A stretch of 64,000 nucleotides of DNA from an uncultured Dokdonia sp. (GTDB lineage Bacteria; Bacteroidota; Bacteroidia; Flavobacteriales; Flavobacteriaceae): NCBI RefSeq assembly GCF_947496725.1, contig NZ_CANMDS010000002.1:434001-498000 (forward strand), read 5' to 3'. Below the pieces are notes generated by a model that did not search any database, had not been told where the DNA came from, and worked only from the letters and a program-made list of their open reading frames with translations. Below, piece after piece: positions 3,322 through 61,717 of the stretch. Each line of letters starts with the position of its first letter. Positions within the stretch are counted from its first letter, which is position 1. Made by a program: the position numbers and the translations under genes.

Positions 3322-4375
3322 CACAACTATACCTAAAGAGGCAAAAATCTATGTTGCAGGCCATAGAGGCCTTGTGGGAAGTGCAATTGTAAAGGCACTT
3401 ACTGCAAAGGGCTATCATCACATCGTCACGCGCACACACCAAGAGCTGGATCTTACAGATACCCTTGCCACGGCAACATTTTTTAAAACAGAAAAACCAG
3501 CATATGTTTTTCTGGCTGCCGCAAAGGTGGGTGGTATCATAGCAAACAATACGTACAGAGCAGACTTTTTGTATCTCAATCTTATGATACAAAACAACGT
3601 GATACACCAGAGTTACAAGCACGGAGTTAAAAAATTACTTTTCTTGGGTAGTACCTGTATTTATCCAAAAAACGCACCACAACCTATGCCAGAAGATGCG
3701 CTGCTCACAGGTACACTAGAGTATACAAATGAGCCCTATGCTATTGCAAAAATCGCAGGAATCAAGCTTTGTGAGAGTTACAATCTTCAGTATGGGACAG
3801 ATTTTCTATCGGTAATGCCTACTAATTTATATGGGTACAATGATAATTTTGACCTTGAGAAATCACACGTTTTGCCTGCACTTATTAGAAAAATGCACCT
3901 TGCAAAGCTCTTGTCAGAAGGTAAAAACGACGAGGTATGTAAAGATCTAGAGGTTTCCGCTTTCGCGAAAGCGCAACCTATCCTAAAAAAGTTTGGCATC
4001 TCTGCTGAAAGTGTAGAGATATGGGGAACAGGTAGTCCTAGACGCGAGTTTTTATGGAGTCAAGATATGGCAGATGCCTGTGTACATATAATGGAAAAAA
4101 CGAGCTTTGATCAAGTAAGAGGCGACAGTAATGAGGTAAGGAATACCCATATAAATATAGGTACAGGCATAGATATAAGTATAAAAGAGCTTGCTATGCT
4201 TATAAAAAGCACCGTAGGTTTTAATGGTAAACTAGTTTTTGATACTTCAAAGCCAGACGGAACACCTCGTAAACTTACTAACGTAGATAAACTACACGAG
4301 CTAGGGTGGAAGCATACCGTAAACCTAGATGAAGGTGTTGTAAACCTATACAACTGGTACTTAAAAAAGAAATAG
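3314..4375 (+). CDS. fcl: GDP-L-fucose synthase
   Basis: Epimerises and reduces GDP-4-keto-6-deoxymannose to GDP-L-fucose using NADPH. Seen: GHRGLVGSA at about residues 16-24, the [16 protein letters not shown] segment typical of this enzyme, and the catalytic Y142/K146 in PYAIAK. The best start is a TTG inside the end of gmd. At 353 residues it exceeds the roughly 320 of the enterobacterial enzyme; the extra length includes a loop around residues 205-230. The iterated palindrome encodes AFAKA at residues 216-220, within that variable loop, so it probably spares the active site. Confidence 0.95.
3958..3973. repeat. Iterated palindrome in fcl
   Basis: CGCTTTCGCGAAAGCG; coding, read as AFAKA. 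Confidence 0.95.
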
Positions 4376-4996
4376 ATGAATCCCAAAATCTGGACCCCTA
4401 GATATATAACAAACAGAATAGGACTCTATGTATATGAGCAATTTAATAAGGATAAACCTTGGATTGCACCTAGCGCTATAAAATGGCTAGACACAAACTT
4501 ACATAAAGAGATGTCTGGCGTAGAGTTTGGGTCTGGTAGAAGTACTGTTTGGTATGCTCATAAGCTTAAGAACCTCGTAAGCATAGAAGATCATCAGGAC
4601 TGGTATCAAAAAGTAAAACAACAACTTGAAAAAGCTAAGCTTACAAACGTGCGCTATATCTTAAAATCTTGTGAGCAGGATATGTTAGGCCATATCCCTT
4701 ACGTAGATATTGTAAAAGAATTTGATAATAGTTCCATAAATTTTATGGTTGTAGATGGTAAATATCGTGATCGTATTGCCCTAGAAGCTATACAGAAGCT
4801 CACCTCTGGAGGTTTCTTGTTGCTAGATGATGCAGAGCGGTATATACCACTTGATTCACATACACCTTATAATTACAAGAAGGAAGGAAAGAAACAACCA
4901 GAGGAGTGGAAAACGTTTTCAGAACGCACAAGTAGCTGGAAGCAACTGCATTTTACAAGCGGTGTGTCAGACACAGTAGTTTTAATAAAACCATAA
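4376..4996 (+). CDS. Class I SAM-dependent methyltransferase-like protein
   Basis: 206 residues, starting at the base after the fcl stop codon. Seen: VEFGSGRSTVWYAHKL, which fits the glycine-rich SAM-binding motif I of Rossmann-type methyltransferases, and an acidic residue at the end of the next strand (SIEDH). FMVVDGKYRDRI and LLLDDAERY would be later core strands. The setting between fucose synthesis and the flippase suggests it methylates a sugar of the surface glycan. That target is inferred, and a non-methyltransferase Rossmann role cannot be excluded. Confidence 0.65.
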   Translation: MNPKIWTPRYITNRIGLYVYEQFNKDKPWIAPSAIKWLDTNLHKEMSGVEFGSGRSTVWYAHKLKNLVSIEDHQDWYQKVKQQLEKAKLTNVRYILKSCEQDMLGHIPYVDIVKEFDNSSINFMVVDGKYRDRIALEAIQKLTSGGFLLLDDAERYIPLDSHTPYNYKKEGKKQPEEWKTFSERTSSWKQLHFTSGVSDTVVLIKP

Positions 4997-6265
4997 TTGA
5001 GTATATTAAAATCCATAAAAGAGAATGCTGCAGGCCGCAAGATGGCTGGCAACTACGTTTCGTTACTGTTTATACAGGCGGCAAATATTCTGTTACCTCT
5101 TATTTTATTGCCTTACCTAGTACGCACACTAGGTGTAGAAAAATATGGACTTGTATTACTGGCACAATCTTTTTGCACCATTTTATATGTGTTTGTAGAG
5201 TTTGGATTTAACTTAAGTGCTACCCGCAGGATATCTATTCTCAAAGACAATGCCTCAGAAAAATCTCAAGTATTTTCGGCGGTGATATCTATAAAATTAT
5301 TGCTGGCTGTTGCAGTAGCGGTTGTGTATGCGATAATCATACTTGCGTTTCCTAGGTTTAGGTTAGAGTGGGAGGTATATGCGTTAAGTTATGGTGTAGT
5401 AGTAGGGCAGGCATTGTTTCCAGATTGGTTTTTTCAGGGAATTGAGAAAATGCAGTTTATAGCAATACTCAATGTGCTTGCTAAAATCATTTTTACGGCT
5501 CTTATCTTCATTTTTGTACGTGAGGTAGGTGATTATAGCAATGTGCCATTATTCACCAGTATAGGCTTTCTTATAGCCGGAACCATAAGCTTTATCATAA
5601 GTCTCAAGTTTGTAAAACTCATTAAGCCTTCAAAAAAGATGATGGGTGAACTTATGACAGAGAGTAAAAGCATCTTTGTGTCTAATATAGCTGCACGTCT
5701 TTTTAACTCTGCAAATGTATTTATAGTGGGGATGATTGCTGGAGATGCTATCGCTGGTATTTACGGTAGTTTTGAAAAGATTTTTATGGCAGCCAAAGGT
5801 TTCTTTTCTCCCATTATGCAAGCTGTTTTCCCCTGGCTCTCTGTACAAGATGAGGCGAAGAGAAGAGCGAGTATACGTAAGATGGCGCCATTTATTATTT
5901 TGCTTGCGAGTGTATTTGTTACCATAATACTCATCTTTGGAGGAGATATTTTACAACTGTTATTTGATGATCCCGCCATAACAGCTTATACAACTGCATT
6001 TAAGATATTATGTACTGCAACCGTTTTTGCAGGCCTTAATATGCTCATCCTTACCTTATACTTACCTGCTGTAGGCGCCTATGTAAAGCGTATGAATATA
6101 CTATTAATAGGAGGCGTTTTAAATGTATTACTCGCCTGTTTACTGGTGTCCATATGGCCTATTTATGGTATTGTGATAGCAGTAGTTTTTACAGAATTAG
6201 CGCTAGCGTTATTAAGTTGGGTGTATTTCTTTAAACAGTCTAAACCCCAAACATATGCCGTCTAG
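4997..6265 (+). CDS. Polysaccharide flippase, Wzx family
   Basis: 422 residues with about twelve hydrophobic segments and the N-terminal pattern of oligosaccharide flippases (NYVSLLFIQAANILLPLILL, then PYLVRTLGVEKYG). It would move undecaprenyl-linked repeat units across the inner membrane. The start is a TTG immediately after the previous stop. Its 3' end overlaps the following glycosyltransferase by 11 bases. A second, unrelated-looking flippase gene lies at 40382, outside this locus. Confidence 0.88.
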   Translation: MSILKSIKENAAGRKMAGNYVSLLFIQAANILLPLILLPYLVRTLGVEKYGLVLLAQSFCTILYVFVEFGFNLSATRRISILKDNASEKSQVFSAVISIKLLLAVAVAVVYAIIILAFPRFRLEWEVYALSYGVVVGQALFPDWFFQGIEKMQFIAILNVLAKIIFTALIFIFVREVGDYSNVPLFTSIGFLIAGTISFIISLKFVKLIKPSKKMMGELMTESKSIFVSNIAARLFNSANVFIVGMIAGDAIAGIYGSFEKIFMAAKGFFSPIMQAVFPWLSVQDEAKRRASIRKMAPFIILLASVFVTIILIFGGDILQLLFDDPAITAYTTAFKILCTATVFAGLNMLILTLYLPAVGAYVKRMNILLIGGVLNVLLACLLVSIWPIYGIVIAVVFTELALALLSWVYFFKQSKPQTYAV

Positions 6266-7328
6266 ACTTACCATTGTACAGACTGCATTACCAGACTATA
6301 GAGCAGGCTTCTATGATGAACTCTACAGATTACTGGACACAAATTTCTCACTATATGGTGGAGCTCATTATTTTGAGCCGTCTGTACAAACAGACAATAG
6401 TATTTTACATAAAAAATTAGAAAACAAATTTATACTAGGGAATCGTTTTTTATGGCAACGAGGAGTTAGACATCTAGCATTTGAGCCTGGTATTGTTGTA
6501 CTTGAGATGAACCCTCGCATATTGAGCAACTGGTGGTTGTTATACAAACGGAAGTCTAAGGGGCTCAAAACCGTGTTGTGGGGTCACGCCTGGCCGCGTA
6601 AGGGTAAACATAGTCCTACAGATCGCTTGCGTCATAAAATGCGTAAACTAGCTTCTACCATCGTGGTGTATACTAAAAAACAGCAGGAAGAGCTACAAGA
6701 AAAAATGCCCGCAACACACATACTCGCCGCGCCTAACGCACTTATGAGTAGTGCAGTAATGAATGTCGCTTCAGGTAAACCACAACACCTTATTTACGTA
6801 GGGCGATTAACTCCAGAAAAAAAACCACTCTTTTTAGTCCAAGCATTTAAAGCGTGTTTGCCAGATCTCTCTCCAGAAACTAAGCTTCTCGTAGTAGGCG
6901 CTGGAGAAGAACAATCTAAAATCGCTACATTTATAGAGAAACATCATCTTGAGAATCGTGTGGTATTGTATGGGCATATAAGTGACACAAAGGAGTTAGA
7001 ACGACTTTATGCATCAAGCTTGTTTAGTGTTTCGCCGGGTTATGTAGGTCTATCTATTACCCAAAGTTTTGGTTTTGGTGTACCTATGCTTATTTCTCGT
7101 GATGAACCGCACTCGCCAGAAATAGAGGCAGCAATAGAGGGCAATAATGTGGTGTTTTATGAGACAGATGATGTGGTACGCTTTCGCGAAAGCGTAAAAA
7201 AAATATTCTCAAACAGAGAAGAGTGGATTGAAAAAAGAGATGCAATCTCCACCTACTGTCGTGAGCGATATACGGTAGAGGCAATGGCAAGGGTGTTTTA
7301 TAAACTTACGCAAGACGATGATAGGTAG
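6255..7328 (+). CDS. GT4-type glycosyltransferase
   Basis: 357 residues with the GT-B fold pattern. The C-terminal half carries LIYVGRLTPEKKPLFLVQAF, VVGAGEEQSKI and the nucleotide-sugar binding stretch SPGYVGLSITQSFGFGVPML, where family 4 enzymes normally have an E-x7-E pattern. It overlaps its neighbours by 11 bases on both sides, indicating tight coupling in the polysaccharide operon. A 20-base copy of the iterated palindrome at 7177-7196 encodes VRFRESV near residues 308-314, in the C-terminal helical region. Donor and acceptor are unknown. Confidence 0.85.
   Translation: MPSRLTIVQTALPDYRAGFYDELYRLLDTNFSLYGGAHYFEPSVQTDNSILHKKLENKFILGNRFLWQRGVRHLAFEPGIVVLEMNPRILSNWWLLYKRKSKGLKTVLWGHAWPRKGKHSPTDRLRHKMRKLASTIVVYTKKQQEELQEKMPATHILAAPNALMSSAVMNVASGKPQHLIYVGRLTPEKKPLFLVQAFKACLPDLSPETKLLVVGAGEEQSKIATFIEKHHLENRVVLYGHISDTKELERLYASSLFSVSPGYVGLSITQSFGFGVPMLISRDEPHSPEIEAAIEGNNVVFYETDDVVRFRESVKKIFSNREEWIEKRDAISTYCRERYTVEAMARVFYKLTQDDDR
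7177..7196. repeat. Iterated palindrome, full 20-base form
   Basis: TACGCTTTCGCGAAAGCGTA inside a glycosyltransferase gene, read as VRFRESV. Confidence 0.95.
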
Positions 7329-9956: not shown

Positions 9957-11025
9957 TAAAAAAGTTCTTCTTATTGGACCACTACCAGAGCCAACCACTG
10001 GTGTATCGCTAGCAAATCAGGTGGTAAGTAGCGTGCTTAAAAATGAAGGTTATAACGTTACGGAGGTAAATACATCCTTTAGTTATCTAGATGAAGAGCT
10101 GGGTGTATTTTCCTTTAAAAAGCTTTGGCACAACCTTAAGTATAATACACAGGCGTTTAAAGTTTTTTCAAACCACATTATTTATTTCACTCCAGGACAA
10201 ACGTTTTTTGGGGTTCTTAAATATGCAGTTTTTATAGTTTTTGCTGCGCTTTCGCGAAAGCGTATCATCACCCATATACACGGCAATCACCTAGGTACAG
10301 CTTACCATCAAATGACCGGTATAAAAAGATGGGTTACAAAGAAACTTATGTCTTTATCTAGCGACGGGATTGTGCTGTCTGAGTCATTAAAACCAAATTT
10401 GACACCCTTTCTAGATAAAAAAAATATTCATATTCTACCCAATTTTGCTCAAGAGTATTTAAAAATAGATATCACAAAAGACTACGCCTCTCCACGGTTT
10501 ATCTATTTGAGTAACCTAATGCAAGAAAAAGGAATTATAATATTTTTAAAAGCACTTCTAGAACTTCAAAATCAGAATATTTCTTACCAAGCTCAAATAG
10601 GTGGAGCTGTCACAAAAGAAATGTGGATGCAAGTAAAACCATTGTTGCTGCAACTCAAAAATGTAGACTATAAAGGCGTGGTAATGGGAGAAGAAAAGAA
10701 AGCCCTTTTTGAGTGGGGTAATGTCTTTGTGCTGCCTACATATTATAAAATGGAAGGGCAGCCCATATCTATCTTAGAAGCAATGGCAACAGGTAGTCTA
10801 ATAATTACCACAACGCAAGGAGGAATACCAGACATTATAAAAAATGGAGAACAAGGTCTCTTTGTTGAAAAACAAAATGTAGAAGATCTCGTTTTAAAGA
10901 TGAAAAGTATTGCCAGTAATCCCAAGATTATTTCTGATATTGGGGTTAAGAACCAGGAACATTTTAGTGAAAACTTCACTATGCAAGCTTTTACCAGTAG
11001 ACTTATAACCATATTTAGAAAGTAG
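9949..11025 (+). CDS. GT4-type glycosyltransferase
   Basis: 358 residues. Seen: an N-terminal glycine-rich loop (GPLPEPTTGVSLANQVV), RFIYLSNLMQEKGI at the start of the second Rossmann domain, and a donor-site stretch YYKMEGQPISILEAMATGS. The last contains the paired glutamates of family 4 GT-B enzymes (E in KMEG and in LEAM). The iterated palindrome at 10247-10262 encodes ALSRKRI near residues 100-106, between core elements of the first domain. The gene sits in the middle of the operon and its stop overlaps the GTG start of the acetyltransferase by one base. Confidence 0.87.
   Translation: MPNKKVLLIGPLPEPTTGVSLANQVVSSVLKNEGYNVTEVNTSFSYLDEELGVFSFKKLWHNLKYNTQAFKVFSNHIIYFTPGQTFFGVLKYAVFIVFAALSRKRIITHIHGNHLGTAYHQMTGIKRWVTKKLMSLSSDGIVLSESLKPNLTPFLDKKNIHILPNFAQEYLKIDITKDYASPRFIYLSNLMQEKGIIIFLKALLELQNQNISYQAQIGGAVTKEMWMQVKPLLLQLKNVDYKGVVMGEEKKALFEWGNVFVLPTYYKMEGQPISILEAMATGSLIITTTQGGIPDIIKNGEQGLFVEKQNVEDLVLKMKSIASNPKIISDIGVKNQEHFSENFTMQAFTSRLITIFRK
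10247..10262. repeat. Iterated palindrome
   Basis: 16-base core inside a glycosyltransferase gene, read as ALSRKR. Confidence 0.95.
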
Positions 11026-11573: not shown

Positions 11574-12789
11574 TCTCACAGGCAAGCACATCACTCTCAT
11601 CTCCCTTAACTTCTATCCAGAAGATACGGCCATAGGTTTATATAGTACCCAGATGGCAGAGTACCTAGAGCAACAGGGTGCACATATATCTGTCATCACA
11701 GCTTTTCCGTATTATCCTCAGTGGGAGATTGCTCCGGCATATCAAGATAAAGGGAGTTACTTACACGAGAAAAAAGGATCTATAGACATTTATAGATACA
11801 AGCAGTTTACACCTAAGAGTCCCACCTTTTTAAAGCGTGTGGTACATATTACAGACTTTACACTAGGCTCACGTTTTAACTTTAAGCAAATAAAGGAGTG
11901 CGATATTGTGATTTCAGTAATACCATTTACGAGCAGTGCGTGGTTAGGTAATACGCTTTCGCGAAAGCGTAATGCAAAACACTGGATACATATTCAAGAT
12001 TTTGAATTTGACGCAGCTTTTCAATCTGGACTTGCCAGCTCGTCAGAAAGTAAAAGTGTTGCTTATAAGGGTTTAATGCGTTTAGAGCGCTCTATTCTGG
12101 ACAGAGCAGACTGTGTGAGCACTATAAGCCAGACTATGCTGGCTAAACTTAAAGAAAAGACAAATACGACTACATATTACCTGCCTAACTGGATAGATGC
12201 CACAGAGAGTGACCCGTCTCAAGTGGCACAACACCCATACTTTTCCCAAGACAAGTTTAGTATTCTGTATGCGGGTAATGTGGGAGATAAACAAGACTGG
12301 TCTTTTTTTAAAAAAATAGTTGCTGCACTAGATTTTACAAAGTTTGAAGTAATTGTAGTAGGTGCAGGAGCAAAAATGGAGATTCTTAAAGATCAACTTA
12401 AAGCGTCAGATGTACAATTTTATGATCCCGTACCTCTAGAAGGGTTAGCGAGTTTACTAGCTAGTGCAGATGTACATATCTTATTTCAAAAAGCCGAAGT
12501 TGTAGACACTGTAATGCCTTCAAAAATTTTAGGAATGATGGCAAGTGCACGCCCTTCTATAATAACCGGCCACCCAGAGGCAGAGCCTGCAAAAATTATA
12601 GAGGCATCGCAAGGCGGCTATTATAAAAGCACCACAGATGCACAAGAGATTGTGGCTATTTTAAACAGCCTACGTACCAATAGTGATCGAGCAACGTTAA
12701 TGGGGAGTAACGCAAGGAAGTTTATAGTAGAAAAATATGCCAGAAAAGCTATTTTGAAAGACTTTACTGACACATTGAGAAGGTTATAG
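11566..12789 (+). CDS. WcaI-like glycosyltransferase
   Basis: 407 residues. The N-terminus LISLNFYPEDTAIGLYSTQM and the ITAFPYYPQWEI segment are characteristic of the colanic-acid WcaI-type GT4 enzymes. The second domain has FSILYAGNVGDKQDW and the donor-site region DTVMPSKILGMMASARP. The start is a TTG overlapping wcaF by 8 bases. A 20-base palindrome copy at 11952-11971 encodes NTLSRKRN near residues 129-136. The 91 bases after the gene separate it from the UDP-xylose synthase gene. Confidence 0.85.
   Translation: MNNLTGKHITLISLNFYPEDTAIGLYSTQMAEYLEQQGAHISVITAFPYYPQWEIAPAYQDKGSYLHEKKGSIDIYRYKQFTPKSPTFLKRVVHITDFTLGSRFNFKQIKECDIVISVIPFTSSAWLGNTLSRKRNAKHWIHIQDFEFDAAFQSGLASSSESKSVAYKGLMRLERSILDRADCVSTISQTMLAKLKEKTNTTTYYLPNWIDATESDPSQVAQHPYFSQDKFSILYAGNVGDKQDWSFFKKIVAALDFTKFEVIVVGAGAKMEILKDQLKASDVQFYDPVPLEGLASLLASADVHILFQKAEVVDTVMPSKILGMMASARPSIITGHPEAEPAKIIEASQGGYYKSTTDAQEIVAILNSLRTNSDRATLMGSNARKFIVEKYARKAILKDFTDTLRRL
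11952..11971. repeat. Iterated palindrome, full 20-base form
   Basis: Inside the wcaI-like gene, read as TLSRKRN. Confidence 0.95.
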
Positions 12790-15222: not shown

Positions 15223-16000
15223 CCATACACCACAACCCTTAGTTTCTATTATAACACCATTGTATAATGCGGCACGTTTTATACAAGCTTGTAGCGCAAG
15301 TATACAAGCGCAAACCTATCAAAACTGGGAGCATATTATTGTAGATGATGCCTCTACAGATGGCTCGCTATCACTAGCACAAGAGCTTGCTAGCACAGAT
15401 AGTAGGATACGTGTTGTTACGCTTTCGCGAAACAAAGGAGCCGCCTACGCCCGTAATAAAGCAACAGAGGTTGCGAGTGGTGACTACATAGCCTTTCTAG
15501 ATGCAGATGACCTTTGGCATCCCGAAAAATTATCTAAACAAATTACTTTTATGCAAAAGCATAATTGTGCAGTATCGTACACCAGCTACATACAAATAGA
15601 TGATGAGGGTAACCCACTAGGAAAGCGCATAAACGCGATGCCTTCTCTTTCGTATAGTAAACAGCACAAAAATAATTACATAGGTAATCTCACTGGAGTA
15701 TACAATGCTAGCCTGACAGGTAAAATAAGCGCGCCTAGCATAAGAAAAAGGCAAGACTGGGCATTGTGGCTTGAAGCAATAAAAAGAAGCAATAAAAAAG
15801 CCCTAGGGCTTCAAGAGGATCTAGCTTTTTATAGGATACGTGAAGGATCTATGAGTGCAAATAAAGTACAACTAGTAAAGTATAATTTTAAATTTTACAA
15901 TCAGCATCTGGAGTATTCTTGGTTTAAATCAGCATACTGGTTAGGGATTTTTTTAATGGAGTACTTTTTTGTGAGACCAAAATATATAGAAACTTACTAG
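15206..16000 (+). CDS. GT2-family glycosyltransferase
   Basis: 264 residues of GT-A fold. Seen: VSIITPLYNAARFI at the N-terminus, VDDASTDGS, and FLDADDLWHPEKL with the metal-binding DxD. Such enzymes add a sugar from a nucleotide donor at the cytoplasmic face of the membrane. It ends the polysaccharide run and meets the convergent nuclease-like gene with a 4-base overlap. A decayed palindrome (15420-15432) encodes LSRNK right after VVT. Confidence 0.87.
   Translation: MKKPTSHTPQPLVSIITPLYNAARFIQACSASIQAQTYQNWEHIIVDDASTDGSLSLAQELASTDSRIRVVTLSRNKGAAYARNKATEVASGDYIAFLDADDLWHPEKLSKQITFMQKHNCAVSYTSYIQIDDEGNPLGKRINAMPSLSYSKQHKNNYIGNLTGVYNASLTGKISAPSIRKRQDWALWLEAIKRSNKKALGLQEDLAFYRIREGSMSANKVQLVKYNFKFYNQHLEYSWFKSAYWLGIFLMEYFFVRPKYIETY
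15420..15432. repeat. Decayed iterated palindrome
   Basis: CGCTTTCGCGAAA then C; the right flank is lost. Read as LSRNK in the GT2 gene. Confidence 0.5.
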
Positions 16001-17028: not shown

Positions 17029-18336
17029 TTAGACTTTTGATGTAAACTGTTTTAATTTACCGCGGTCAGATCTATCCATTGTAGTTACCTTGATAAAATC
17101 TACTTTTAACCCTTCTTCAAGATAAGTTGCTGTTGCCTTTTTTATAGCATCTTGTTGCTCAGTACTGAGTGGTCTTTGTGCTGTATAAATAAACATAAAT
17201 GTATCTAGTGCTGTTTGTTCAATTACAAACTCTTCTACATTACCATCATCTTGTATGATGCTCTTTGTTACATAATAAAAGGTGAGACCTGGTACTACTT
17301 TTCCGCTTGGTAATCTTGCTATATCATTTGTGCGGCCTTGCAATTTTTCTAGAATTGGTTTTTTGGGAGTACTTTTTCGCGAAAGCGCACCCATATCTCC
17401 TATATCATAGCGTATAAATGGATGGGCTTTATTGTAAAAAGAGGTAATCACAATGCGTCCCACTTCGCCATTAGGTACGGTACGATTATTTTCATCAAGA
17501 ATTTCAACGAGCAGGAGCTCGCTGTCTACTTGTAACTCATTGTCTTTATTTTGAAATGCGATGAGTCCAATTTCTGATGCCCCATACTCATTGATAACAG
17601 GTACGTTGAGGTATTCTTCTATAAGCTTACGGTCATCTGGAAAGAGCATCTCGCTCGTTACAATACAAGCTTTAAGAGTAGGACAAACCTCTTTAAGGAT
17701 GAGATTGTGTTTTTTTAAATATTTGGCAAATAGTACAATACTGCTGGTGTAACCGTTTATGTACTCAAATTTCTTTTTCTTAAATGCTTTGTGAATAGAT
17801 TTTAGTGCTTTTTCATTAAGATTAAAAATTGGGAAGCGGTATCTATTGCTTAAAAAGTCTTTGAGACGCTCTTTTGTATACCCAATAGCGTTGAGCGGAA
17901 TACCGTAAAATCGTGCTTGTTTTGAGCGGTCTAGATCAAGGTCAAACCATTGATATCTATCTTCAAAAGAGGCCCAAGTGAGTGCGTGTGCGTCTTTATC
18001 TTTTGCAAATGTAAAAGGTGTGCCAGAGGAGCCGGAGGTTTTACCTACGTGTACATTTTTAAGATGATAGAGTTCAGAGAGTCTTTGTTCAAGTGGTTGT
18101 TGTAAATCTTTCTTTGTGAGCACTGGTAGTGTTTCCCAGTCTTTTTCATCTCTTTTTATAAGTAGATTTTTATAAAAAGAGTTGTAAATCTCGTGATAGG
18201 TTACTATGGTCTTTTTTTGTTCTGAAATGTAGTCTTCATATTCACTTTCTGGTATGCTTTGGATACGTGCTAATTCTGCTTTTGCAAAATCAGTATCAAA
18301 CCCTTTCATTCGTAACGCTCGGTTAAATAGTTTCAA
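17029..18336 (-). CDS. CapK/phenylacetate-CoA-ligase-like adenylate-forming protein
   Basis: 435 residues. Seen: the phosphate-binding loop GKTSGSSGTPF, the adenylation motif NEYGASEIG, and RYDIGDMG with the ATP-ribose-binding aspartate. This is the PaaK/CapK subgroup; CapK members are common beside polysaccharide loci, where they are thought to activate an acyl substituent. The start appears to be TTG. A decayed palindrome at 17374-17387 encodes ALSRKS in the C-terminal part. The substrate is unknown. Confidence 0.78.
   Translation of the reverse strand: MKLFNRALRMKGFDTDFAKAELARIQSIPESEYEDYISEQKKTIVTYHEIYNSFYKNLLIKRDEKDWETLPVLTKKDLQQPLEQRLSELYHLKNVHVGKTSGSSGTPFTFAKDKDAHALTWASFEDRYQWFDLDLDRSKQARFYGIPLNAIGYTKERLKDFLSNRYRFPIFNLNEKALKSIHKAFKKKKFEYINGYTSSIVLFAKYLKKHNLILKEVCPTLKACIVTSEMLFPDDRKLIEEYLNVPVINEYGASEIGLIAFQNKDNELQVDSELLLVEILDENNRTVPNGEVGRIVITSFYNKAHPFIRYDIGDMGALSRKSTPKKPILEKLQGRTNDIARLPSGKVVPGLTFYYVTKSIIQDDGNVEEFVIEQTALDTFMFIYTAQRPLSTEQQDAIKKATATYLEEGLKVDFIKVTTMDRSDRGKLKQFTSKV
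17374..17387. repeat. Decayed iterated palindrome
   Basis: TTTTTCGCGAAAGCG region in the CapK-like gene; the left arm lost GC. Minus-strand reading ALSRKS. Confidence 0.55.
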
Positions 18337-20994: not shown

Positions 20995-21635
20995 TGAAGC
21001 TCGATATATCCTACATAGAGAGTGAGTTAAAGAAAAGGTGTAACCTTCCCTATGTTTGGAATAGAAAGCAAAATGATACTTGGGATGATGCGACTAAGTT
21101 TATTTATAAAACAATGTCTTGGGAAGCACTTTTAGCTCAAATAGAGGAGCAACAAAAGGAGCACAATTTTCCCACACAAGATTTCTTTAACTACGCCATA
21201 AACAGATGGTACAACTTCTGGAGTGCCCAGGCCGTAGAAAAAATCTTTACAGACCTACCAGGTTTCGCACCTAACCCTAATCCGGTAGAAGACCACTACG
21301 ATTTTAGATGGCTAGGCGAGCGCATAGACCATAAAACAAGTATATTCCCAAAAGGATTTGGTGAGAATTACGCTTTCGCGAAAGCGCACAAAACACAACT
21401 CATACAGTGGTTTTACAAGCACCAAAGTACCGGACAACGCTTTCACCTCAATAACAGGTTATTTATAGTCGTGCACGACCAAAACGGAGAACACTGGAAA
21501 CTAAAAGCCGAAATAGAACTCATAAAATCCATCATAGAACCCTACGGAAAACAGAAAACACCAGCAGTAATGGAAGTCCTTTCCCTCGAGGAAGGAAAGG
21601 AAACAATGGCAGACATTATATGGGTAAATAGATGA
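20994..21635 (+). CDS. Putative type II restriction endonuclease (PD-(D/E)XK-like)
   Basis: 213 residues. The ATG overlapping the previous stop is chosen because MKLDISYIE begins the soluble protein. Seen: a helix with E82, then aspartates D100 and D103, and IDHKTS with D112 and K114. That spacing fits the D...(D/E)-x-K metal site of PD-(D/E)XK nucleases (compare D-I-K in EcoRV). The gene overlaps an adenine methyltransferase gene by 4 bases, the usual layout of a type II system. The palindrome encodes AFAKA at 127-131, just after the putative active site. I do not recognise the family; nuclease function is inferred from motif and neighbour. Confidence 0.55.
   Translation: MKLDISYIESELKKRCNLPYVWNRKQNDTWDDATKFIYKTMSWEALLAQIEEQQKEHNFPTQDFFNYAINRWYNFWSAQAVEKIFTDLPGFAPNPNPVEDHYDFRWLGERIDHKTSIFPKGFGENYAFAKAHKTQLIQWFYKHQSTGQRFHLNNRLFIVVHDQNGEHWKLKAEIELIKSIIEPYGKQKTPAVMEVLSLEEGKETMADIIWVNR
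21371..21386. repeat. Iterated palindrome in the putative restriction gene
   Basis: 16-base core, read as AFAKA. Confidence 0.95.
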
Positions 21636-23302: not shown

Positions 23303-24316
23303 ATGGCTAGACAAAAACATATTCTCATCATACGGCTCTCTGCAATGGGAGATGTAGCGATGACGGTGCCTGTGGTTTACGCTTTCGCGAAAGCAAATCC
23401 AGACATAAAAATATCTTTTCTCTCAAAACCATTTTTTAAACCCATTGTAAGCTCCATACCTAACCTTGAATTTGTTGCTGCAAATGTCACTTCAGAACAT
23501 AAAGGAGTGATGGGTATATGGAAACTCGCACGAGAGCTTAAAAAGCTTGGTATCACACACGTTGCAGACTTGCACAATGTCATACGGTCTAAAATGCTTC
23601 GTACCTTTCTTAATCTGCCTAGTGCAACTCTAGATAAAGGAAGAGCCGAAAAGAAAGCACTCACTAGAGAAAGCGATAAGAACTTTACACAACTTGCTAC
23701 AACCGTACAGCGCTACAAAGCTGTTTTTGACAACCTAGAATTTAAAGACCTAGTTCCAGAGGTTTTACCAAAACCCAATAAAGCGCCAGCAATCATTGAG
23801 TTTACAGCAGGTCATAATCGTAAGTGGCTGGGAGTAGCACCTTTTGCCGCTCACCTAGGTAAGCAGTATCCTCTAGATTATATGAAAATGGTAGTAGAAG
23901 GAATAGACCAATTAGATAAGTACGATATCTTTCTATTTGGAGCGCCCTCAGAAGTGACTATACTTAATAACCTCTCAGATAGCTGTAAAAATGTAAAGGT
24001 CGTAGCTGGAGCACTTAAATTTAAAGAAGAACTTAATCTTATAAGTCAGCTAGACGGTATGCTTTCTATGGATAGTGGTAACGCACACCTAGCAGCAATG
24101 TATGGCGTGCCTACGATAAGCCTTTGGGGAGTAACACATCCTTATGCAGGCTTTGCTCCATTTAATCAAGAAGAGCACTGCATAGTGTCAGACAGAAAAA
24201 AGTATCCAAAAATCCCAACTTCAATATACGGCAATCTAGTGCCAGAAGGTTATGAAGATGTGATGAAAACCACCTTACCAGAACAGGTAATAGATAAGAT
24301 TAAAGCAACTATCTAA
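23303..24316 (+). CDS. Glycosyltransferase family 9 (heptosyltransferase-like)
   Basis: 337 residues. The N-terminus ILIIRLSAMGDVAMTVPVVYAF is the family 9 acceptor-side signature. SMDSGNAHLAAMYGVPTISLWG is the conserved C-terminal nucleotide-sugar motif with the D-S-G-N/H-A-H pattern. Such enzymes add heptose or another sugar to lipid A-core. The palindrome (23381-23394, one flank base changed) encodes AFAKA at about residues 27-31, directly after the first helix. It follows DUF4254 after a strong hairpin. Confidence 0.9.
   Translation: MARQKHILIIRLSAMGDVAMTVPVVYAFAKANPDIKISFLSKPFFKPIVSSIPNLEFVAANVTSEHKGVMGIWKLARELKKLGITHVADLHNVIRSKMLRTFLNLPSATLDKGRAEKKALTRESDKNFTQLATTVQRYKAVFDNLEFKDLVPEVLPKPNKAPAIIEFTAGHNRKWLGVAPFAAHLGKQYPLDYMKMVVEGIDQLDKYDIFLFGAPSEVTILNNLSDSCKNVKVVAGALKFKEELNLISQLDGMLSMDSGNAHLAAMYGVPTISLWGVTHPYAGFAPFNQEEHCIVSDRKKYPKIPTSIYGNLVPEGYEDVMKTTLPEQVIDKIKATI
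23381..23394. repeat. Iterated palindrome in the family 9 glycosyltransferase gene
   Basis: 14-base core GCTTTCGCGAAAGC, read as AFAKA. Confidence 0.9.
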
Positions 24317-25332: not shown

Positions 25333-25352
25333 TACGCTTTCGCGAAAGCGTA
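25333..25352. repeat. Iterated palindrome, intergenic 20-base form
   Basis: Starts 3 bases after the stop codon of the flavin enzyme gene and 9 bases before its terminator. Confidence 0.95.
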
Positions 25353-26946: not shown

Positions 26947-27999
26947 CTATATATCATCATAATCTACCACAATTCTAGCTGAGGTAGGATGCGCCTGGCA
27001 GGTAAGGATGAGTCCCTCTGCAACCTCTGCATCTGTAAGAATTTGATTTTGTGACATCACAGCAGTACCTTCTGTTACTCTTGCGATACAGCTACTGCAT
27101 ACGCCGCCTTGACAAGAGTGTGGTGCGTCTATATCTTCATCTAGCGATGCGTCAAGAATGTTTGTCTCTTGATCCATTGTAAACTCAAACTCCTCATCGT
27201 CACAAAGTACTTTTATAGCCGTTTTACCATCTAGAGGCGCTTCTATTTCTGAAGTTTCTGTGCTTGCAGTAAAAAGTTCAAAATGTATAGCAGTATCTGC
27301 AACTTCATTTTCTTTTAGAACTTTAGTTACTTCATTAATCATTGCCTCTGGACCACATAAAAAGTAATCGTCAAAGTTGTTTTCGGCATATTTATTTTTT
27401 ACCACAAAGTTTACCGTAGATTTCATAATACGGCCAAAGTGTGCGCCATCTACACGCGACTGCGAGTAAATAGACTCTATAGAGAAGCGATCTGTATATT
27501 GAGATCTCAAGGCTTGTAACTCGTCTATAAACATCGCCTCCTCTGGTGTTCGGTTCCCAAAGACTAGTACAAAAGTGCTATCTGGAGATTGAGTAAGGGT
27601 TGTCTTTATCATAGACAGAATAGGTGTAATACCAGAACCTGCGGCAAATGCTGCGTAGTTTTTCGCTTTCGCGAAAGCGGAATTATCTATCTTAAATCTA
27701 CCCTCTGGTTCTTGTACCTCTAGCGTGTCACCTTCCTTAAGTTCTCTATTTGCATACGTTGAAAACGTTCCGTTTTCTACCTCTTTTACAGCAACGGTAA
27801 GCCCCTCTTGAGGTGTGCTACAAATAGAGTAAGCACGTCTAACCTCTGTGCCATCTATAGTAGTTTTTAAAGTAATATATTGACCAGGCGCAAAGGTAAA
27901 GTGCTCTTTTAAAGCACCCGGAAGTGCAAAAGTAATAGCAACAGACTTTGTTGTGATTCTTGTAATGGTCTGAATATGAAGTGTATGAAATGAAGACAT
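26947..27999 (-). CDS. PaaE-like ferredoxin reductase (FAD, NAD(P)H and 2Fe-2S domains)
   Basis: 350 residues. Domains in order: FAD-binding with RRAYSICSTP, NAD-binding with AAGSGITPILSM, and a C-terminal plant-type ferredoxin with the cluster motif CQGGVCSSC and a final cysteine in LTCQAHP. This order is that of PaaE and related oxygenase reductases, which pass electrons from NAD(P)H to a partner oxygenase. No Paa genes are nearby, so the partner is unknown. The start at 27999 is chosen because a TATTTTTG promoter element lies only 15 bases upstream. The palindrome encodes AFAKA in the hinge before the NAD domain. Confidence 0.85.
   Translation of the reverse strand: MSSFHTLHIQTITRITTKSVAITFALPGALKEHFTFAPGQYITLKTTIDGTEVRRAYSICSTPQEGLTVAVKEVENGTFSTYANRELKEGDTLEVQEPEGRFKIDNSAFAKAKNYAAFAAGSGITPILSMIKTTLTQSPDSTFVLVFGNRTPEEAMFIDELQALRSQYTDRFSIESIYSQSRVDGAHFGRIMKSTVNFVVKNKYAENNFDDYFLCGPEAMINEVTKVLKENEVADTAIHFELFTASTETSEIEAPLDGKTAIKVLCDDEEFEFTMDQETNILDASLDEDIDAPHSCQGGVCSSCIARVTEGTAVMSQNQILTDAEVAEGLILTCQAHPTSARIVVDYDDI
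27664..27679. repeat. Iterated palindrome in the reductase gene
   Basis: 16-base core, minus-strand reading AFAKA at a domain hinge. Confidence 0.95.
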
Positions 28000-30608: not shown

Positions 30609-33146
30609 TTGACAATACTCTTAAGACGTATCCTCTGTACAAGTATTCTTGTATTAATTCTTGCGAGCTGCTCTCGCAAGAAAGATTCATTTATAAGTCG
30701 CAACTACCACGCAGTTACCACAGAGTACAATACGTTATATAATGGTAACGTCGCCCTAGATGAAGGTAAGAGTGCACTTATACAAACCTTTAATGATAAC
30801 TACTGGGAGGTATTACCTATAGAGCGCATTTCTTTTGAAGAAAACACGGCTCTAGGTGAAGAGAACAGAGATCCTAACTTTGTAAGAGCAGAAGAAAAAG
30901 CAATCAAAGCCATACAGCGCCACTCTATGAAAATAGATGGAGAAGAGCGCAACCCACAAATGGATGAAGCCTTCTTACTACTAGGAAAAGCAAGATATTT
31001 TGACCAGCAATTTGTCCCAGCACTCGAAGCTTTTAATTACGTACTTGCATATTACCCTAAGAGTAACAATATCGCTCAGGCAAAAGTCTGGAAGGAAAAG
31101 ACAAACATCAGGCTAGAAAATAATGAGATTGCTATAGAGAATCTCAATAAGATTTTTAAAGTAGAGAAAAATCTCAAAAACCAAGACATTGCAGATGCAA
31201 AAGCAATGCTTGCGCAGGCCTACCTAAATCTAAACAAACCAGATAGTGCTCTCATTTATATAAAAGAAGCATCAGACCTTACTCGTAAGTATGAAGAAAG
31301 AGGTCGCTATAACTACATCAAGGGGCAGCTGTATAATCGTCTCGATAAAAAAGATAGTGCAAACCTTGCCTTTCAAGAAGTGATAGACCTTAATAGAAAG
31401 ATACCGCGCAAGTATCATATTAATGCACATCTAGAGCAAATACGTAGTAGTGACCTTACTACAGAAGATACTCTTGCACTAAGAGAGCGTCTAGATAAAA
31501 TGGTAAGCAATAGAGAGAATAGACCATTTTTAGATAAAATATATTACACAAAGGCGGCCTATTATATGAGCCTAGGTAAAGAAGACTCTGCTATTGCAAA
31601 TTATAATAAGTCATTAAGGGAGACTAGCACAGATAACTATCTTGTGTCACGAGATTATCTCGCACTTGCAGACTATAATTTTGAGCAAGCCGCATATAAA
31701 ACTGCTGGTGCTTATTATGATAGTATGCTGGGTAAAATAAGCGACCGTACAAGAGAGTATAGGTCTGTAAAAAAGAAGCGTGATAACCTTACAGATGTTA
31801 TTGCATATGAAGATCTTACCCTTCGTAATGACAGTATAATTTCGCTAGTTACAATGTCTGAAGATGATCTAACGGCATATTTTGACAACTATATAGCAGA
31901 GCTTAAGGCAAAGGAAGCTGCAGACTCTATTGCTAGAGTAGATAAAATACGTAATAACGAGTTTTTTAATAGTAGTACTAGTGCTCGTAAAAAAACACAA
32001 GCTACAGCTGGTGAATTTTACTTCTATAATGATGTGGCCGTATCTTATGGTAAGCAAGCCTTTGAGCGTAGATGGGGTAAAAGAAGACTAGCAGATGGAT
32101 GGCGCCTCTCATCAAAACAAACTCCAGCTAGTAACGGAGGACTCTTGCCGGTAGCACTTCAAGAAGAAGAGGAGACACAAAAGAAAACAGCACAAGACTA
32201 TATTGCAACACTACCTAGGGATAGAACTCAAATAGATAGCCTCATTAAAGAGCGTGACTTTGCATACTTTCAGCTAGGGCTTATTTATAAAGAAAAGTTT
32301 AAAGAATATCCTTTGGCGGCAAATCGTTTAGAAAAGCTATTAAGTTTCAAACCTGATGAGAAGCTTGTGTTGCCAGCTACCTATAACTTGTATCAAGTGT
32401 ATGAATCTATGGACGCTTTCGCGAAAGCGGAAACCTATAAAAACGAGATCACCACAAAGTATCCAGACTCTCGTTATGCTACAAGAATAAATAATCCTAA
32501 TACAGCACTTGAAGCAGATGCAGAGGCTCCAGAAGAAATTTATAAAGGTTTATACAAGCGTTTTCAAAACCAAGAATATGCAGGTCTTCTCTCAGACCTA
32601 GAAATAAAAATTGATCAACTTTATGGAGATCCATATTTACCTAAATTTGAACTGCTTAAAGCAACCGTGTTAGGTAGATATAAAGGGTATGATGCTTACA
32701 AAGAGAGCCTTAATTATGTAGCACTTACCTACCCACGTACAGAAGAGGGTAAGAAAGCTCAAAACTTATTGCGCAATGCTTTGCCTACAATGAAGTTTGA
32801 AAACTTTGATGACGAGGCAATTTCTATAAACTATAAGGTGCTATACTCCTTTACAAGTTCTGACGTGCAAGGAGCGCGCGATTTTCAGAGGAGACTTGTA
32901 GAGAGCTTTGAAAAAATAGGCTACACACAGTTTTCTACCTCTATAGATGTATATAATGAGAAAGAGTCTTTTGTAGTAATACACTTTTTAGACAGTAGAA
33001 ATCAAGCCGAAGGCCTTGTTGAATTACTTGCAGTAAATGATCAAGTAAGAATTACAAGACCTAATACCATTATTGCTTCAGAAAATTATAAGATCATCCA
33101 AGTACATAAAAACTTTGATGCTTATAAGGCACAAAAAACAAAATGA
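30609..33146 (+). CDS. sprE: SprE/PorW-like type IX secretion and gliding lipoprotein
   Basis: 845 residues with a lipoprotein signal (hydrophobic stretch ending LILASC, cysteine at about 21) and many tetratricopeptide-like helical repeats, for example AFLLLGKARYFDQQFVPALEAFNYVLAYYP. The mature N-terminus (FISRNYHAVTTEYNTLYNGN) is characteristic of SprE of Flavobacterium, equivalent to PorW. That lipoprotein is needed for type IX protein secretion and gliding. Start TTG at 30609 gives the correct signal peptide. The palindrome at 32414-32429 encodes AFAKA between two repeats near residue 605. The bactofilin gene follows 24 bases later. Confidence 0.88.
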   Translation: MTILLRRILCTSILVLILASCSRKKDSFISRNYHAVTTEYNTLYNGNVALDEGKSALIQTFNDNYWEVLPIERISFEENTALGEENRDPNFVRAEEKAIKAIQRHSMKIDGEERNPQMDEAFLLLGKARYFDQQFVPALEAFNYVLAYYPKSNNIAQAKVWKEKTNIRLENNEIAIENLNKIFKVEKNLKNQDIADAKAMLAQAYLNLNKPDSALIYIKEASDLTRKYEERGRYNYIKGQLYNRLDKKDSANLAFQEVIDLNRKIPRKYHINAHLEQIRSSDLTTEDTLALRERLDKMVSNRENRPFLDKIYYTKAAYYMSLGKEDSAIANYNKSLRETSTDNYLVSRDYLALADYNFEQAAYKTAGAYYDSMLGKISDRTREYRSVKKKRDNLTDVIAYEDLTLRNDSIISLVTMSEDDLTAYFDNYIAELKAKEAADSIARVDKIRNNEFFNSSTSARKKTQATAGEFYFYNDVAVSYGKQAFERRWGKRRLADGWRLSSKQTPASNGGLLPVALQEEEETQKKTAQDYIATLPRDRTQIDSLIKERDFAYFQLGLIYKEKFKEYPLAANRLEKLLSFKPDEKLVLPATYNLYQVYESMDAFAKAETYKNEITTKYPDSRYATRINNPNTALEADAEAPEEIYKGLYKRFQNQEYAGLLSDLEIKIDQLYGDPYLPKFELLKATVLGRYKGYDAYKESLNYVALTYPRTEEGKKAQNLLRNALPTMKFENFDDEAISINYKVLYSFTSSDVQGARDFQRRLVESFEKIGYTQFSTSIDVYNEKESFVVIHFLDSRNQAEGLVELLAVNDQVRITRPNTIIASENYKIIQVHKNFDAYKAQKTK
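32414..32429. repeat. Iterated palindrome in sprE
   Basis: 16-base core, read as AFAKA between TPR-like repeats. Confidence 0.95.
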
Positions 33147-36876: not shown

Positions 36877-36891
36877 ATTTTCGCGAAAGCG
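36877..36891. repeat. Decayed copy of the iterated palindrome (atpH-atpA gap)
   Basis: Right half intact (TCGCGAAAGCGG); the left arm reads TTT in place of GCT. Confidence 0.6.
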
Positions 36892-38497: not shown

Positions 38498-38510
38498 CGC
38501 TTTCGCGAAA
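38498..38510. repeat. Decayed copy of the iterated palindrome (atpA-atpG gap)
   Basis: CGCTTTCGCGAAA intact, right flank lost; 8 bases after the atpA stop codon. Confidence 0.65.
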
Positions 38511-38526
38511 AATATAATTCAACAAC

Positions 38527-39812: not shown

Positions 39813-40334
39813 ATGTATAAACTATTTACAGTTTTGAGCCTAGCAGTTAGTTCTTTGTTATTAACGCAATGCAAGTCTGCATCATCTATAGAAAATCAAG
39901 AAATAATGACTTTGTCCACACCTTCATTTGCTTCTGTAGCCGCTCATTATAATACGTATGTTGCCGGTGTGCAGGGTGGTGGTACGGGTATTGAATTTTA
40001 TATACCTACAGAGGTAGCTTCAACAATTACAATGGAGAAAATCTTCTTTCGCGAAAGCGCAGGTAGACTTATGAAATCTAATACAGGTTATGTTGCACGG
40101 TTTAGAACAGATAAAGGCTTAGATCAGGATGTTGTGATGTCTAATAATGCAAATGAAGAAGCTGTAAATACACCTCCAGTGGTAAATGATACATTTCCAT
40201 TTGCCCTTACAAATGATCAAGCAGGGCTTATCTATAAAGATAATGGGGTTGTGAAGTACTGTATCTTGTCTAACATAAAGGAGCGCGACTCAAAAGCCTA
40301 CCCACAACAACGACCAAGAGGAAATGGCTACTAG
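39813..40334 (+). CDS. Hypothetical lipoprotein
   Basis: 173 residues. Start MYKLFTVLSL at 39813 gives a lipoprotein signal with lipobox LLTQC at about 15-19, so a longer in-frame start is rejected. The mature part is soluble, with TPPVVNDTFPFALTNDQAGLIYKDNG and a proline/arginine-rich end. A decayed palindrome encodes FRESA. Family not recognised; it would be anchored to a membrane on the periplasmic or outer side. Confidence 0.65.
   Translation: MYKLFTVLSLAVSSLLLTQCKSASSIENQEIMTLSTPSFASVAAHYNTYVAGVQGGGTGIEFYIPTEVASTITMEKIFFRESAGRLMKSNTGYVARFRTDKGLDQDVVMSNNANEEAVNTPPVVNDTFPFALTNDQAGLIYKDNGVVKYCILSNIKERDSKAYPQQRPRGNGY
40046..40059. repeat. Decayed iterated palindrome
   Basis: CTTTCGCGAAAGCG with the left GC replaced by TT; read as FFRESA in a lipoprotein gene. 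Confidence 0.6.
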
Positions 40335-41846: not shown

Positions 41847-41866
41847 TACGCTTTCGCGAAAGCGTA
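41847..41866. repeat. Iterated palindrome, intergenic 20-base form
   Basis: Begins one base after the flippase stop codon. Confidence 0.95.
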
Positions 41867-46838: not shown

Positions 46839-46858
46839 TACGCTTTCGCGAAAGCGTA
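46839..46858. repeat. Iterated palindrome, intergenic 20-base form
   Basis: Begins 9 bases after the stop codon of the EnvC-like gene. Confidence 0.95.
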
Positions 46859-58235: not shown

Positions 58236-58255
58236 TACGCTTTCGCGAAAGCGTA
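58236..58255. repeat. Iterated palindrome, intergenic 20-base form
   Basis: 6 bases beyond the stop of the Gfo/Idh gene (minus strand). Confidence 0.95.
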
Positions 58256-60722: not shown

Positions 60723-60727
60723 ATTGC

Positions 60728-61717
60728 TTATTTAAGATTGTCTATTGATTTTTGAACTAGTGCTTTAGTCAGAGCGATACCTTCTTTTGGGTCTTCTAGT
60801 GGTCCTTCATATTCTGTACCCACATATCCTTCAAAACCACTATCGGCAACGATTTGCATTAATCGTTGATAGTCTAATTTTGTCTCATCACCATTTTCAT
60901 CAAAGTTATATGACTTTGCAGACACTCCTTTTGCATACGGCATCATTTCTTCTATTCCTTTATAGGTATCATATTCTAAAACACAAGGCGCGCCCCAGCG
61001 TTCTCCACCTTCACGTTTTACACAAAAGTTTCCAAAATCTGGTAAGACACCTACTGTTTCCATATTAACCTCTTTCATCACAGCAACAAGCTTTTCTCCA
61101 TCACTAGACCATCCTCCGTGGTTTTCTATAATTACGTTTACGCCTACTTCTTTACCGTAAGCTCCTAGTTCTTTAAGAGATGATACAGATAGTGCGTGCC
61201 ATTTTACAGGATCTAGCTCTCCAAAGAGATTTGCCCTTACCGAGTGTGCTCCCATAAGTTTTGCAGCATCCATCCATATTTTGTGATTTGCGATAGCTTC
61301 TTCTAGTTTTTTAGGATCTGGATCTGCTAGTTCACCAGCGTGATCAACCATAATAAGAACGTTATCCATTCCTGCAGCAGTTGCCTTAGCATTAAGGTTA
61401 TTTGCAAGTTTCATTACACGTTCTTTATAACCTGCCCCTACTTCAGCAACAAATGGATATAATTGTGTCACATATTCTACTCCGGTAAAACCAAGATCTT
61501 TGGCAATTTGCGGGAATTCCATCGGGTCCATAGTACCGTCTTGAAACGGTTTGTGAAGAGACCATTGAGCGAGGGAATGTTTGTAAGAGGGCATATTTTC
61601 TTTAGAAACTTCTTTTTCCGCTTTCGCGAAAGCGGAATTCTCTTCTTTTTTTACCTCTTCTTTACAAGAAATAAGTACAAAAGCGCATAAAAAAGCGCCT
61701 AACAAATAATTTTTCAT
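60728..61717 (-). CDS. Exported TIM-barrel isomerase-like lipoprotein
   Basis: 329 residues starting MKNYLLGAFLCAFVLISCKE, with lipobox LISC at about 15-18. A longer in-frame start would destroy the signal and is rejected. The mature part is a xylose-isomerase-like barrel (LGFTGVEYVTQLYPFVAEVG, VIIENHGGWSSDGEKL, GVLPDFGNFC, GTEYEGPLEDP). The palindrome encodes AFAKA at about residues 28-32, in the linker after the lipid anchor. It is the first gene of the minus-strand sugar operon, divergent from the GMC gene. Confidence 0.87.
   Translation of the reverse strand: MKNYLLGAFLCAFVLISCKEEVKKEENSAFAKAEKEVSKENMPSYKHSLAQWSLHKPFQDGTMDPMEFPQIAKDLGFTGVEYVTQLYPFVAEVGAGYKERVMKLANNLNAKATAAGMDNVLIMVDHAGELADPDPKKLEEAIANHKIWMDAAKLMGAHSVRANLFGELDPVKWHALSVSSLKELGAYGKEVGVNVIIENHGGWSSDGEKLVAVMKEVNMETVGVLPDFGNFCVKREGGERWGAPCVLEYDTYKGIEEMMPYAKGVSAKSYNFDENGDETKLDYQRLMQIVADSGFEGYVGTEYEGPLEDPKEGIALTKALVQKSIDNLK
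61616..61637. repeat. Iterated palindrome, 22-base variant form
   Basis: Core flanked by TTC and GAA, giving a perfect 22-base palindrome; minus-strand reading AFAKA in a lipoprotein linker. Confidence 0.95.

What the first reader, a model, noticed from the sequence alone, without database searches (positions are those of the whole stretch)
3958..61637. A highly iterated palindrome, CGCTTTCGCGAAAGCG, dispersed through the chromosome
The 14-base core GCTTTCGCGAAAGC occurs 15 times exactly in 64 kb (cores starting at 3959, 7180, 10248, 11955, 21372, 23381, 25336, 27665, 32415, 41850, 46842, 49610, 55238, 58239, 61620), with about six decayed copies. With random bases far less than one copy would be expected. 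It crosses unrelated genes and both coding and intergenic DNA, so it is not a regulon operator. It is not tandem and has no spacers. Its shape (TTTC...GAAA around a CG centre) loosely recalls parS and Noc sites, but the half-site spacing differs, so that link is only an analogy. Possible roles: binding site of a nucleoid or chromosome-segregation protein, a methylation site (its centre TCGCGA), or a self-spreading mini-palindrome.
Basis: partly seen in the sequence, partly recalled or inferred. Interest (0 to 1): 0.88.

Follow-up and report, generated by a model that had tools for sequence, protein, structure and literature searches.

The report
Evenly spaced palindrome across Dokdonia chromosomes

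Summary
All 15 cores are where stated. The genome, a Dokdonia (Flavobacteriaceae), holds 905 exact copies; 18 of 18 Dokdonia genomes hold 369-905. Of 397 family genomes (237 genera) only Dokdonia and two genera that are not its sisters exceed 19 copies. The unit is larger than described: an invariant TTTCGCGAAA, GC arms, and C-poor, G/T-rich flanks of 20-25 bases with a three-base T rhythm. Spacing is strikingly even: 4-7 exact cores per 20 kb, variance/mean 0.14. Cores change several-fold more slowly than surrounding DNA. The 'decayed copies' look like half-sites that fill gaps. Viral contigs and a mobile copper element carry it.

Best guess, at modest confidence: a two-headed Chi-like site, read from either side by a DNA-end-processing machine. 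The window's genome has no PF00145 or PF01555 methyltransferase and only one ParB. AddB, part of the obvious Chi reader, is in all 21 genomes tested and shows no link to the motif.

The parts
3959..3972 (.). full site (both GC arms)
   Evidence: exact core
7180..7193 (.). full site
   Evidence: exact core
10248..10261 (.). full site
   Evidence: exact core
11955..11968 (.). full site
   Evidence: exact core
15421..15434 (+). half-site, left arm intact
   Evidence: 2 mismatches; type L
17373..17386 (-). half-site, right arm intact
   Evidence: 2 mismatches; type R
21372..21385 (.). full site; orthologous place kept in Dokdonia G206
23381..23394 (.). full site; kept in G206
25336..25349 (.). full site starting 7 bases after the end of ORF 24358-25329
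27665..27678 (.). full site; kept in G206
32415..32428 (.). full site; kept in G206
36877..36890 (-). half-site, right arm intact, just before the ATP-synthase alpha gene (36912-38489)
   Evidence: not at this place in G206
38499..38512 (+). half-site, left arm intact, just after the ATP-synthase alpha gene
40045..40058 (-). site with one mismatch in the left arm, right arm intact
41850..41863 (.). full site starting 5 bases after the end of ORF 40382-41845
46842..46855 (.). full site; kept in Dokdonia MAG L031
49610..49623 (.). full site inside the dprA gene; kept in L031
55238..55251 (.). full site at the start of the yicC-like gene
58239..58252 (.). full site between ORFs 57128-58198 and 58262-59398
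61620..61633 (.). full site inside ORF 60728-61765

Best explanation
The palindrome is a two-headed, Chi-like recognition site. Each half is a polar module, 5'-(C-poor, G/T-rich ~20 nt)-TTACGC-TTTCGCGAAA-3', and the full site is two such modules head to head sharing the 10-base centre. A processive machine that works inward from DNA ends (helicase-nuclease or similar) would read the module on one strand from either side, stop degrading, and hand the C-poor strand lying 5' of the core to a recombinase that binds three bases per subunit (RecA works so; recalled). Every stretch of DNA then needs one site within a few kb, which gives selection for even spacing, for keeping each site, and for phages and mobile elements to carry it as a mark of self. 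Shown by calculation: copy number, flanks, spacing, conservation, half-sites, presence in viral contigs.
For: Even spacing beyond placements that keep the coding/intergenic split (CV 0.50 against 0.80-1.38 in 2000 simulations). Slow change: 52 of 55 aligned sites kept against G249 at 95.1% identity, where 66.9% of random 10-mers are identical; 13 of 17 against G254 at 79.0%, where 19.2% are. C-poor flanks with period-3 T, also in strictly intergenic flanks (permutation p 0.0003 all, 0.0009 intergenic) and in a second genus (0.003 and 0.02). In half-sites the flank bias goes with the intact arm: C 71 of 782 against 120 of 782 bases, p 0.0002. Neighbouring half-sites are mostly of opposite type, 13 of 16, p 0.010. 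30 viral contigs (41 stretches) hold the 16-mer; two of them were checked and have phage genes; the related Winogradskyella phage Peternella_1 has none. Parallel: E. coli phages without own recombinases hold Chi at host-like density, 0.2 per kb (PMC3784561, passages); here the host has 905 in 3.29 Mb.
Against: An AddB-like protein (PF12705, about 900 aa) is in all 21 genomes tested, motif-rich or poor; the AddB tree does not group the motif-rich genera, and they share 1 exclusive residue against 0-2 in the null (AddB pieces without the N-terminus). A second, AddA-like match was found in 18 of 21 and not in motif-rich G010 and G242 nor in G042. RecC is in 0 of 21. The 10-base invariant core is longer than the Chi sites I recall (5-8 bases), and I recall no palindromic Chi. 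A dimeric DNA-binding protein would also give half-sites with weaker flanks. The period-3 phase was chosen after seeing the data, and in the 26 intergenic G242 flanks period 3.5 has slightly more power than 3. Some half-site pairs in C2 and G254 are orthologous, and bases within a flank are not independent, so both p values are optimistic. Motif-poor hosts carry elements with the sites, so a site alone is not tied to a host reader. No experiment exists.
Confidence: 0.35

Rival explanations
1. It is the binding site of a chromosome-organising or segregation protein (nucleoid protein, loop anchor or similar) that needs evenly spaced anchors along the chromosome.
For: Even spacing and strong conservation; enrichment in intergenic DNA (67 of 152 sites where about 7-10% of the DNA is non-coding); symmetric site of dimer shape.
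Against: Viral contigs and a mobile element carry the site; diverged viral pairs share some sites at the same place (contigs chosen for having the motif). A three-base flank rhythm is unusual for a duplex-binding protein (inference; a 10-base rhythm was not fairly tested, since the detrending damps it). No Noc-like ParB paralogue in 10 of 11 Dokdonia genomes.
Confidence: 0.25
2. It is a DNA-uptake sequence built up by molecular drive through natural transformation, as DUS of Neisseria or USS of Haemophilus.
For: DUS are overrepresented, highly conserved and spaced at the length of conversion fragments (PMC2397512, passages); even spacing of the Haemophilus sequence was reported by Karlin et al. 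as cited in PMC1939737, which itself finds it not so even (passages). A dprA gene is present. Drive on few-kb fragments would give even spacing (inference).
Against: DUS are absent from recently acquired genes (PMC2397512, passages), whereas here viral contigs and a mobile element carry the site, 21 ten-mers in 86 kb of the element. Almost no single-mismatch copies: 5 against 135 exact. Known uptake sequences are not palindromes (recalled). I recall no demonstrated transformation in Dokdonia; no paper search was made for it.
Confidence: 0.12
3. It is a HIP in the cyanobacterial sense, made and kept by an orphan DNA methyltransferase and mismatch repair.
For: Same outward look: palindromic, iterated, in genes and between them; changes by substitution. 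[quoted passage not shown]
Against: No PF00145 match in 6 of 11 Dokdonia genomes incl. the window's, nor in G242 or G190 (present in 5 Dokdonia and G010). No PF01555 match in 9 of 11 Dokdonia and only sub-cutoff ones in the other 2, none in G242 (present in G010 and G190). With its flanks the site is far longer than usual methyltransferase targets. Other methyltransferase families (e.g. PF02384, PF02086) were not tested.
Confidence: 0.1
4. It is a selfish mini-palindrome (REP/REPIN-like) that copies itself.
For: Palindrome in many copies.
Against: Copies are spaced more evenly than chance, hardly decayed and at orthologous places; in the close pair all four differences are substitutions; in the distant pair 3 of 8 involve gaps in poorly aligned DNA; flank bases do not pair across the centre beyond composition; 85 of 152 sites are in genes.
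Confidence: 0.03

Closest known systems
HIP1 (GCGATCGC) of cyanobacteria and alternate HIPs
   Same: Palindrome iterated across a whole genome, in coding and intergenic DNA, kept by selection, function unsolved.
   Different: 14-22 bases instead of 8, with long biased flanks; about 0.3 per kb against one per 1131 bp in Synechocystis (PMC6604393, passage); much evener than random placement; in Bacteroidota; no match to the two methyltransferase families tested in the window's genome; found in viral contigs.
Chi sites of RecBCD/AddAB
   Same: Similar density (E. coli host and phages 0.2 per kb, PMC3784561, passage), found all over the chromosome, carried by phages; G/T-rich strand 5' of the core resembles Chi's own G/T-richness (recalled).
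   Different: Palindromic rather than one-directional, longer core, even spacing, no link with AddB found.
DUS/USS uptake sequences
   Same: Overrepresented, conserved core with weaker flanks.
   Different: Palindrome; present in viral and mobile DNA; hardly any one-mismatch forms in Dokdonia.
parS / Noc binding sites
   Same: TTTC...GAAA palindromes.
   Different: Two instead of four central bases (recalled consensus); hundreds of sites; usually a single ParB per genome.

Membership tests
HIP class (cyanobacterial sense) | palindrome hugely overrepresented genome-wide | tested here: met
   905 copies, control 0
HIP class (cyanobacterial sense) | methyltransferase for part of the sequence in every such genome | tested here: inconclusive
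   no PF00145 or PF01555 match in the window's genome; other families untested
Chi site | polar, strand-specific recognition | tested here: inconclusive
   flank bias goes with the intact arm; unlike half-sites neighbour each other in 13 of 16 cases
Chi site | cognate RecBCD or AddAB whose specificity matches | tested here: inconclusive
   AddB-like match in 21 of 21, AddA-like in 18 of 21; RecC in 0 of 21; AddB shows no convergence
Chi site | alters end resection and raises recombination | not testable with these tools
   needs experiment
DNA uptake sequence | raises uptake by competent cells | not testable with these tools
   needs experiment
DNA uptake sequence | rare or absent in mobile and recently acquired DNA | tested here: not met
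   viral contigs and an about 86-kb mobile element carry it
parS/Noc site | a ParB-family reader of its own, as Noc is beside ParB | tested here: not met
   one PF02195 protein in 10 of 11 Dokdonia genomes, two in G261
REP/BIME/REPIN | almost wholly intergenic hairpins | tested here: not met
   85 of 152 in genes; no extra pairing of flanks
REP/BIME/REPIN | RAYT transposase in the genome | not tested
   PF01797 was not searched

The most novel reading that the evidence does not exclude
A bidirectional self-mark: a laterally moved DNA-end-processing or defence machine that spares DNA bearing a polar site. Three lineages that are not sisters have each studded the whole chromosome with two-headed versions, at an even 3-4 kb pitch in two of them; phages and mobile elements copy the mark to pass as self; and one lineage (G190) is now losing it.
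Probability: 0.25. Interest if true: 0.92.

Novelty: new variant of a known kind. Interest (0 to 1): 0.82.

Why it matters
I know of few sequence marks laid out so evenly along a bacterial chromosome. Whatever reads it sets a length scale of about 3 kb for the DNA of the cell. The motif may also serve as a tracer of phages and mobile DNA that have lived in such hosts.

Tried and rejected
Alternate palindromes in 12 motif-poor relatives (17.5-20 kb each): no 12-mer palindrome above 2 copies. RNA or cruciform hairpin beyond the core: flanks pair no more than composition predicts. PF00145, PF01555, ParB/Noc, RecC. AddB convergence: 1 exclusive column, null 0-2. Origin-terminus trend in G190 (20 stretches): no clear one by eye. 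Site density in lineage-specific DNA: the spans fetched did not match end to end, so one search is not used as evidence. DNA search for named phages like the L145 contig: no match. Close pairs of sites as a clue to an autoregulated reader gene: they pointed to half-sites instead. Structure prediction was not used.

Statistics told against the reading: a 1000-bp exclusion zone with at most one site per intergenic region gives CV mean 0.643, lowest 0.493 of 500, so it can just reach the observed 0.504; but 9 of 131 observed gaps are under 1000 bp.
Full report
CHECK. All 15 stated cores are exact at the stated places; five more have one or two mismatches; shuffled sequence gives 0.12 on average. 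The window is C2:434001-498000 of a 3,291,590-base, 121-contig genome that holds 905 exact copies and none of the reversed control. The host is taken as Dokdonia: the dprA product of the window matches a Dokdonia MAG at 98%, and that 10-kb MAG contig has both of its sites at the same places. A 21-kb Hyunsoonleella locus from the same scan (61% identity) has no site.

DISTRIBUTION. All 18 genomes of the genus held have 369-905 copies. In the family, 397 genomes from 237 genera were counted: 80 have at least one copy, but only 6 genomes of 3 genera have hundreds, namely Dokdonia (2 in this draw), g11 (578, 609, 664) and g191 (408); the next highest is 19 (a first draw of 249 is). In a draw of 395 genomes of the phylum, no genome outside the family has more than one copy. 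A tree of five proteins of the ATP-synthase region (one identified by Pfam, the others named by position) from 17 genomes separates the three rich genera: Dokdonia lies with motif-poor G076 (0.998), g11 with G051 (weak, 0.48), G190 with G101 (0.978). The other two genera could not be named with the tools at hand.

ANATOMY. In 464 kb of G000 (400 kb of contig C1 plus the window) there are 135 exact cores but only 5 with one and 17 with two mismatches; control palindromes average 0, 0.07 and 0.84. TTTCGCGAAA is invariant in the sense that all 152 TTCGCGAA lie in it. Outward come GC, then C, A/T, T, T. To about 25 bases from the centre the left side is poor in C (about 5-8%, background about 19%) and rich in G and T, and the right side mirrors this. 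T peaks at 11, 14, 17 and 20 bases from the centre, in coding and in intergenic sites and in a second genus; the phase was picked after seeing it, so the p values are optimistic. The flanks do not pair with each other beyond composition.

HALF-SITES. Of the 17 two-mismatch copies, 13 have both mismatches in one GC arm. In Dokdonia pieces the C-poor flank follows the intact arm, and half-sites next to each other are mostly of opposite type (13 of 16 without G190, p 0.010; some pairs are orthologous, so the true weight is lower). In the window the five imperfect sites lie in the two 9.4-kb gaps of the exact series. I read the palindrome as two polar modules head to head. A dimeric protein with one good half-site is the plainer alternative.

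SPACING. Exact cores per 20 kb of C1: 4 7 7 7 6 6 7 6 6 6 6 5 5 7 7 5 6 5 5 7, variance/mean 0.14. Gap CV is 0.50; 2000 placements keeping the coding/intergenic split give 0.80-1.38. Stricter nulls: one site per intergenic region, CV 0.755 or more; with a 500-bp exclusion 0.628 or more; with a 1000-bp exclusion down to 0.493 (500 runs each). G249 (200 kb, largely orthologous to G000 DNA) and G242 (220 kb) give CV 0.52 and 0.42. G190 is less even (0.80, gaps cut by the 20-kb stretches) and shows decay: 63 exact, 18 with one and 29 with two mismatches in 440 kb.

SELECTION. Against G249 (95.1% identity) 52 of 55 aligned sites are identical, where 66.9% of random 10-mers and 64.4% of other CGCG 10-mers are; against G254 (79.0%) 13 of 17, where 19.2% and 18.4% are. 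One of 56 and 39 of 56 sites could not be aligned, the latter in large part because only 100 kb of G254 were fetched. In the close pair all four differences seen both ways were substitutions; in the distant pair 3 of 8 involved gaps. In genes 48 of 85 sites read in one frame as AFAKA, 20 and 17 in the others.

MOBILE DNA. In motif-poor hosts the copies cluster: all 16 of G076 lie within 78 kb of one contig, and 12 of 17 of G051 on one contig. In the fetched DNA 21 ten-mers lie within 86 kb of G076; much of that stretch is matched in G051, mostly at 75-100% protein identity. It carries a copper/metal efflux set (named from the G160 copy), a serine recombinase and a strawberry-notch helicase near a gene with an N6-methylase domain. 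Related copper regions in other genera often have two sites 933 bases apart. IMG/VR holds 41 stretches (30 contigs by my count) with the 16-mer; several are GC-rich with a single copy and may be chance, while one AT-richer contig holds 6 exact 16-mers in 37 kb; over 44 non-redundant sites the flank bias is visible. Two contigs were checked for phage genes and have them: terminase and Mu-like portal (L148), integrase and tape measure (L137). Over all, partly redundant, viral pairs below 97% identity, 35 sites are shared and 21 one-sided, with 31% of random 10-mers identical; sharing is seen down to 64-70% identity. These contigs were chosen for having the motif. The Mu-like Winogradskyella phage Peternella_1, 54.5% identical in terminase, has none.

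READERS TESTED. PF00145: no match in 6 of 11 Dokdonia genomes incl. the window's, nor in G242 and G190. PF01555: no match in 9 of 11 Dokdonia, sub-cutoff in 2; present in G010 and G190. ParB: one per genome in 10 of 11 Dokdonia. PF12705: an AddB-like protein in 21 of 21, a second AddA-like one in 18 of 21, not in G010, G242 and G042 (the names AddA and AddB are mine, from domain and size). RecC in 0 of 21. The AddB tree does not group the rich genera, and shared exclusive residues do not exceed the null.

READING. The even pitch, the care with which each site is kept, the C-poor strand 5' of the core on each strand, the three-base rhythm and the presence in viral DNA point together to a mark read by something that travels along or processes DNA, as Chi is. 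That RecA-type proteins bind three bases per subunit and favour G/T-rich DNA is recalled; a paper search for it gave nothing useful. The failure to link AddB is the main weakness; lateral transfer of an unknown machine would explain the scattered distribution better.

LITERATURE. Nine paper searches. One search found no paper with the 14-mer or the 12-mer; ten listed papers hold the 10-mer, none on Bacteroidota by title. Seen: PMC4390886 (outline with abstract, Discussion part 1, passages), PMC3784561, PMC1939737, PMC2397512 and PMC6604393 (passages). Xu et al. 2018 on HIP1 selection and periodicity is not held; I know it here only as cited in PMC6604393.

Noticed in passing
L210-L215, L216-L221 (G076 C3, G051 C6 and C98): An about 86-kb mobile element shared by two genera, with copper/metal efflux genes, a serine recombinase and a strawberry-notch helicase near an N6-methylase-domain gene.
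   Followed up: partly
L121, L124, L127: A copper region in several Flavobacteriaceae genera, often with two sites 933 bases apart; exact spacings 933, 10754, 3991 recur in G160 and G215.
   Followed up: partly
G190 (L092-L111): A genome in which the palindrome seems to be decaying: many one- and two-mismatch copies and less even spacing.
   Followed up: partly
L144 1321-6214: A viral contig with the site also carries a type III-like restriction-modification pair (N6_N4 methylase and ResIII/endonuclease proteins).
   Followed up: no
G010/G242 AddB (L192, L193): AddB of genus g11 is unusually diverged (about 32-39% identity to the other genera), and no AddA-like PF12705 match was found there.
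   Followed up: no
window 156-16000: Polysaccharide gene cluster (weak Wzy-like match, glycosyltransferase, sugar transferase) bears sites at normal density although such clusters are often variable.
   Followed up: no
G250, G260, G261, G263: Some Dokdonia assemblies are 4.8-5.5 Mb against about 3.3 Mb for others, with no more sites; possibly mixed or inflated assemblies.
   Followed up: no
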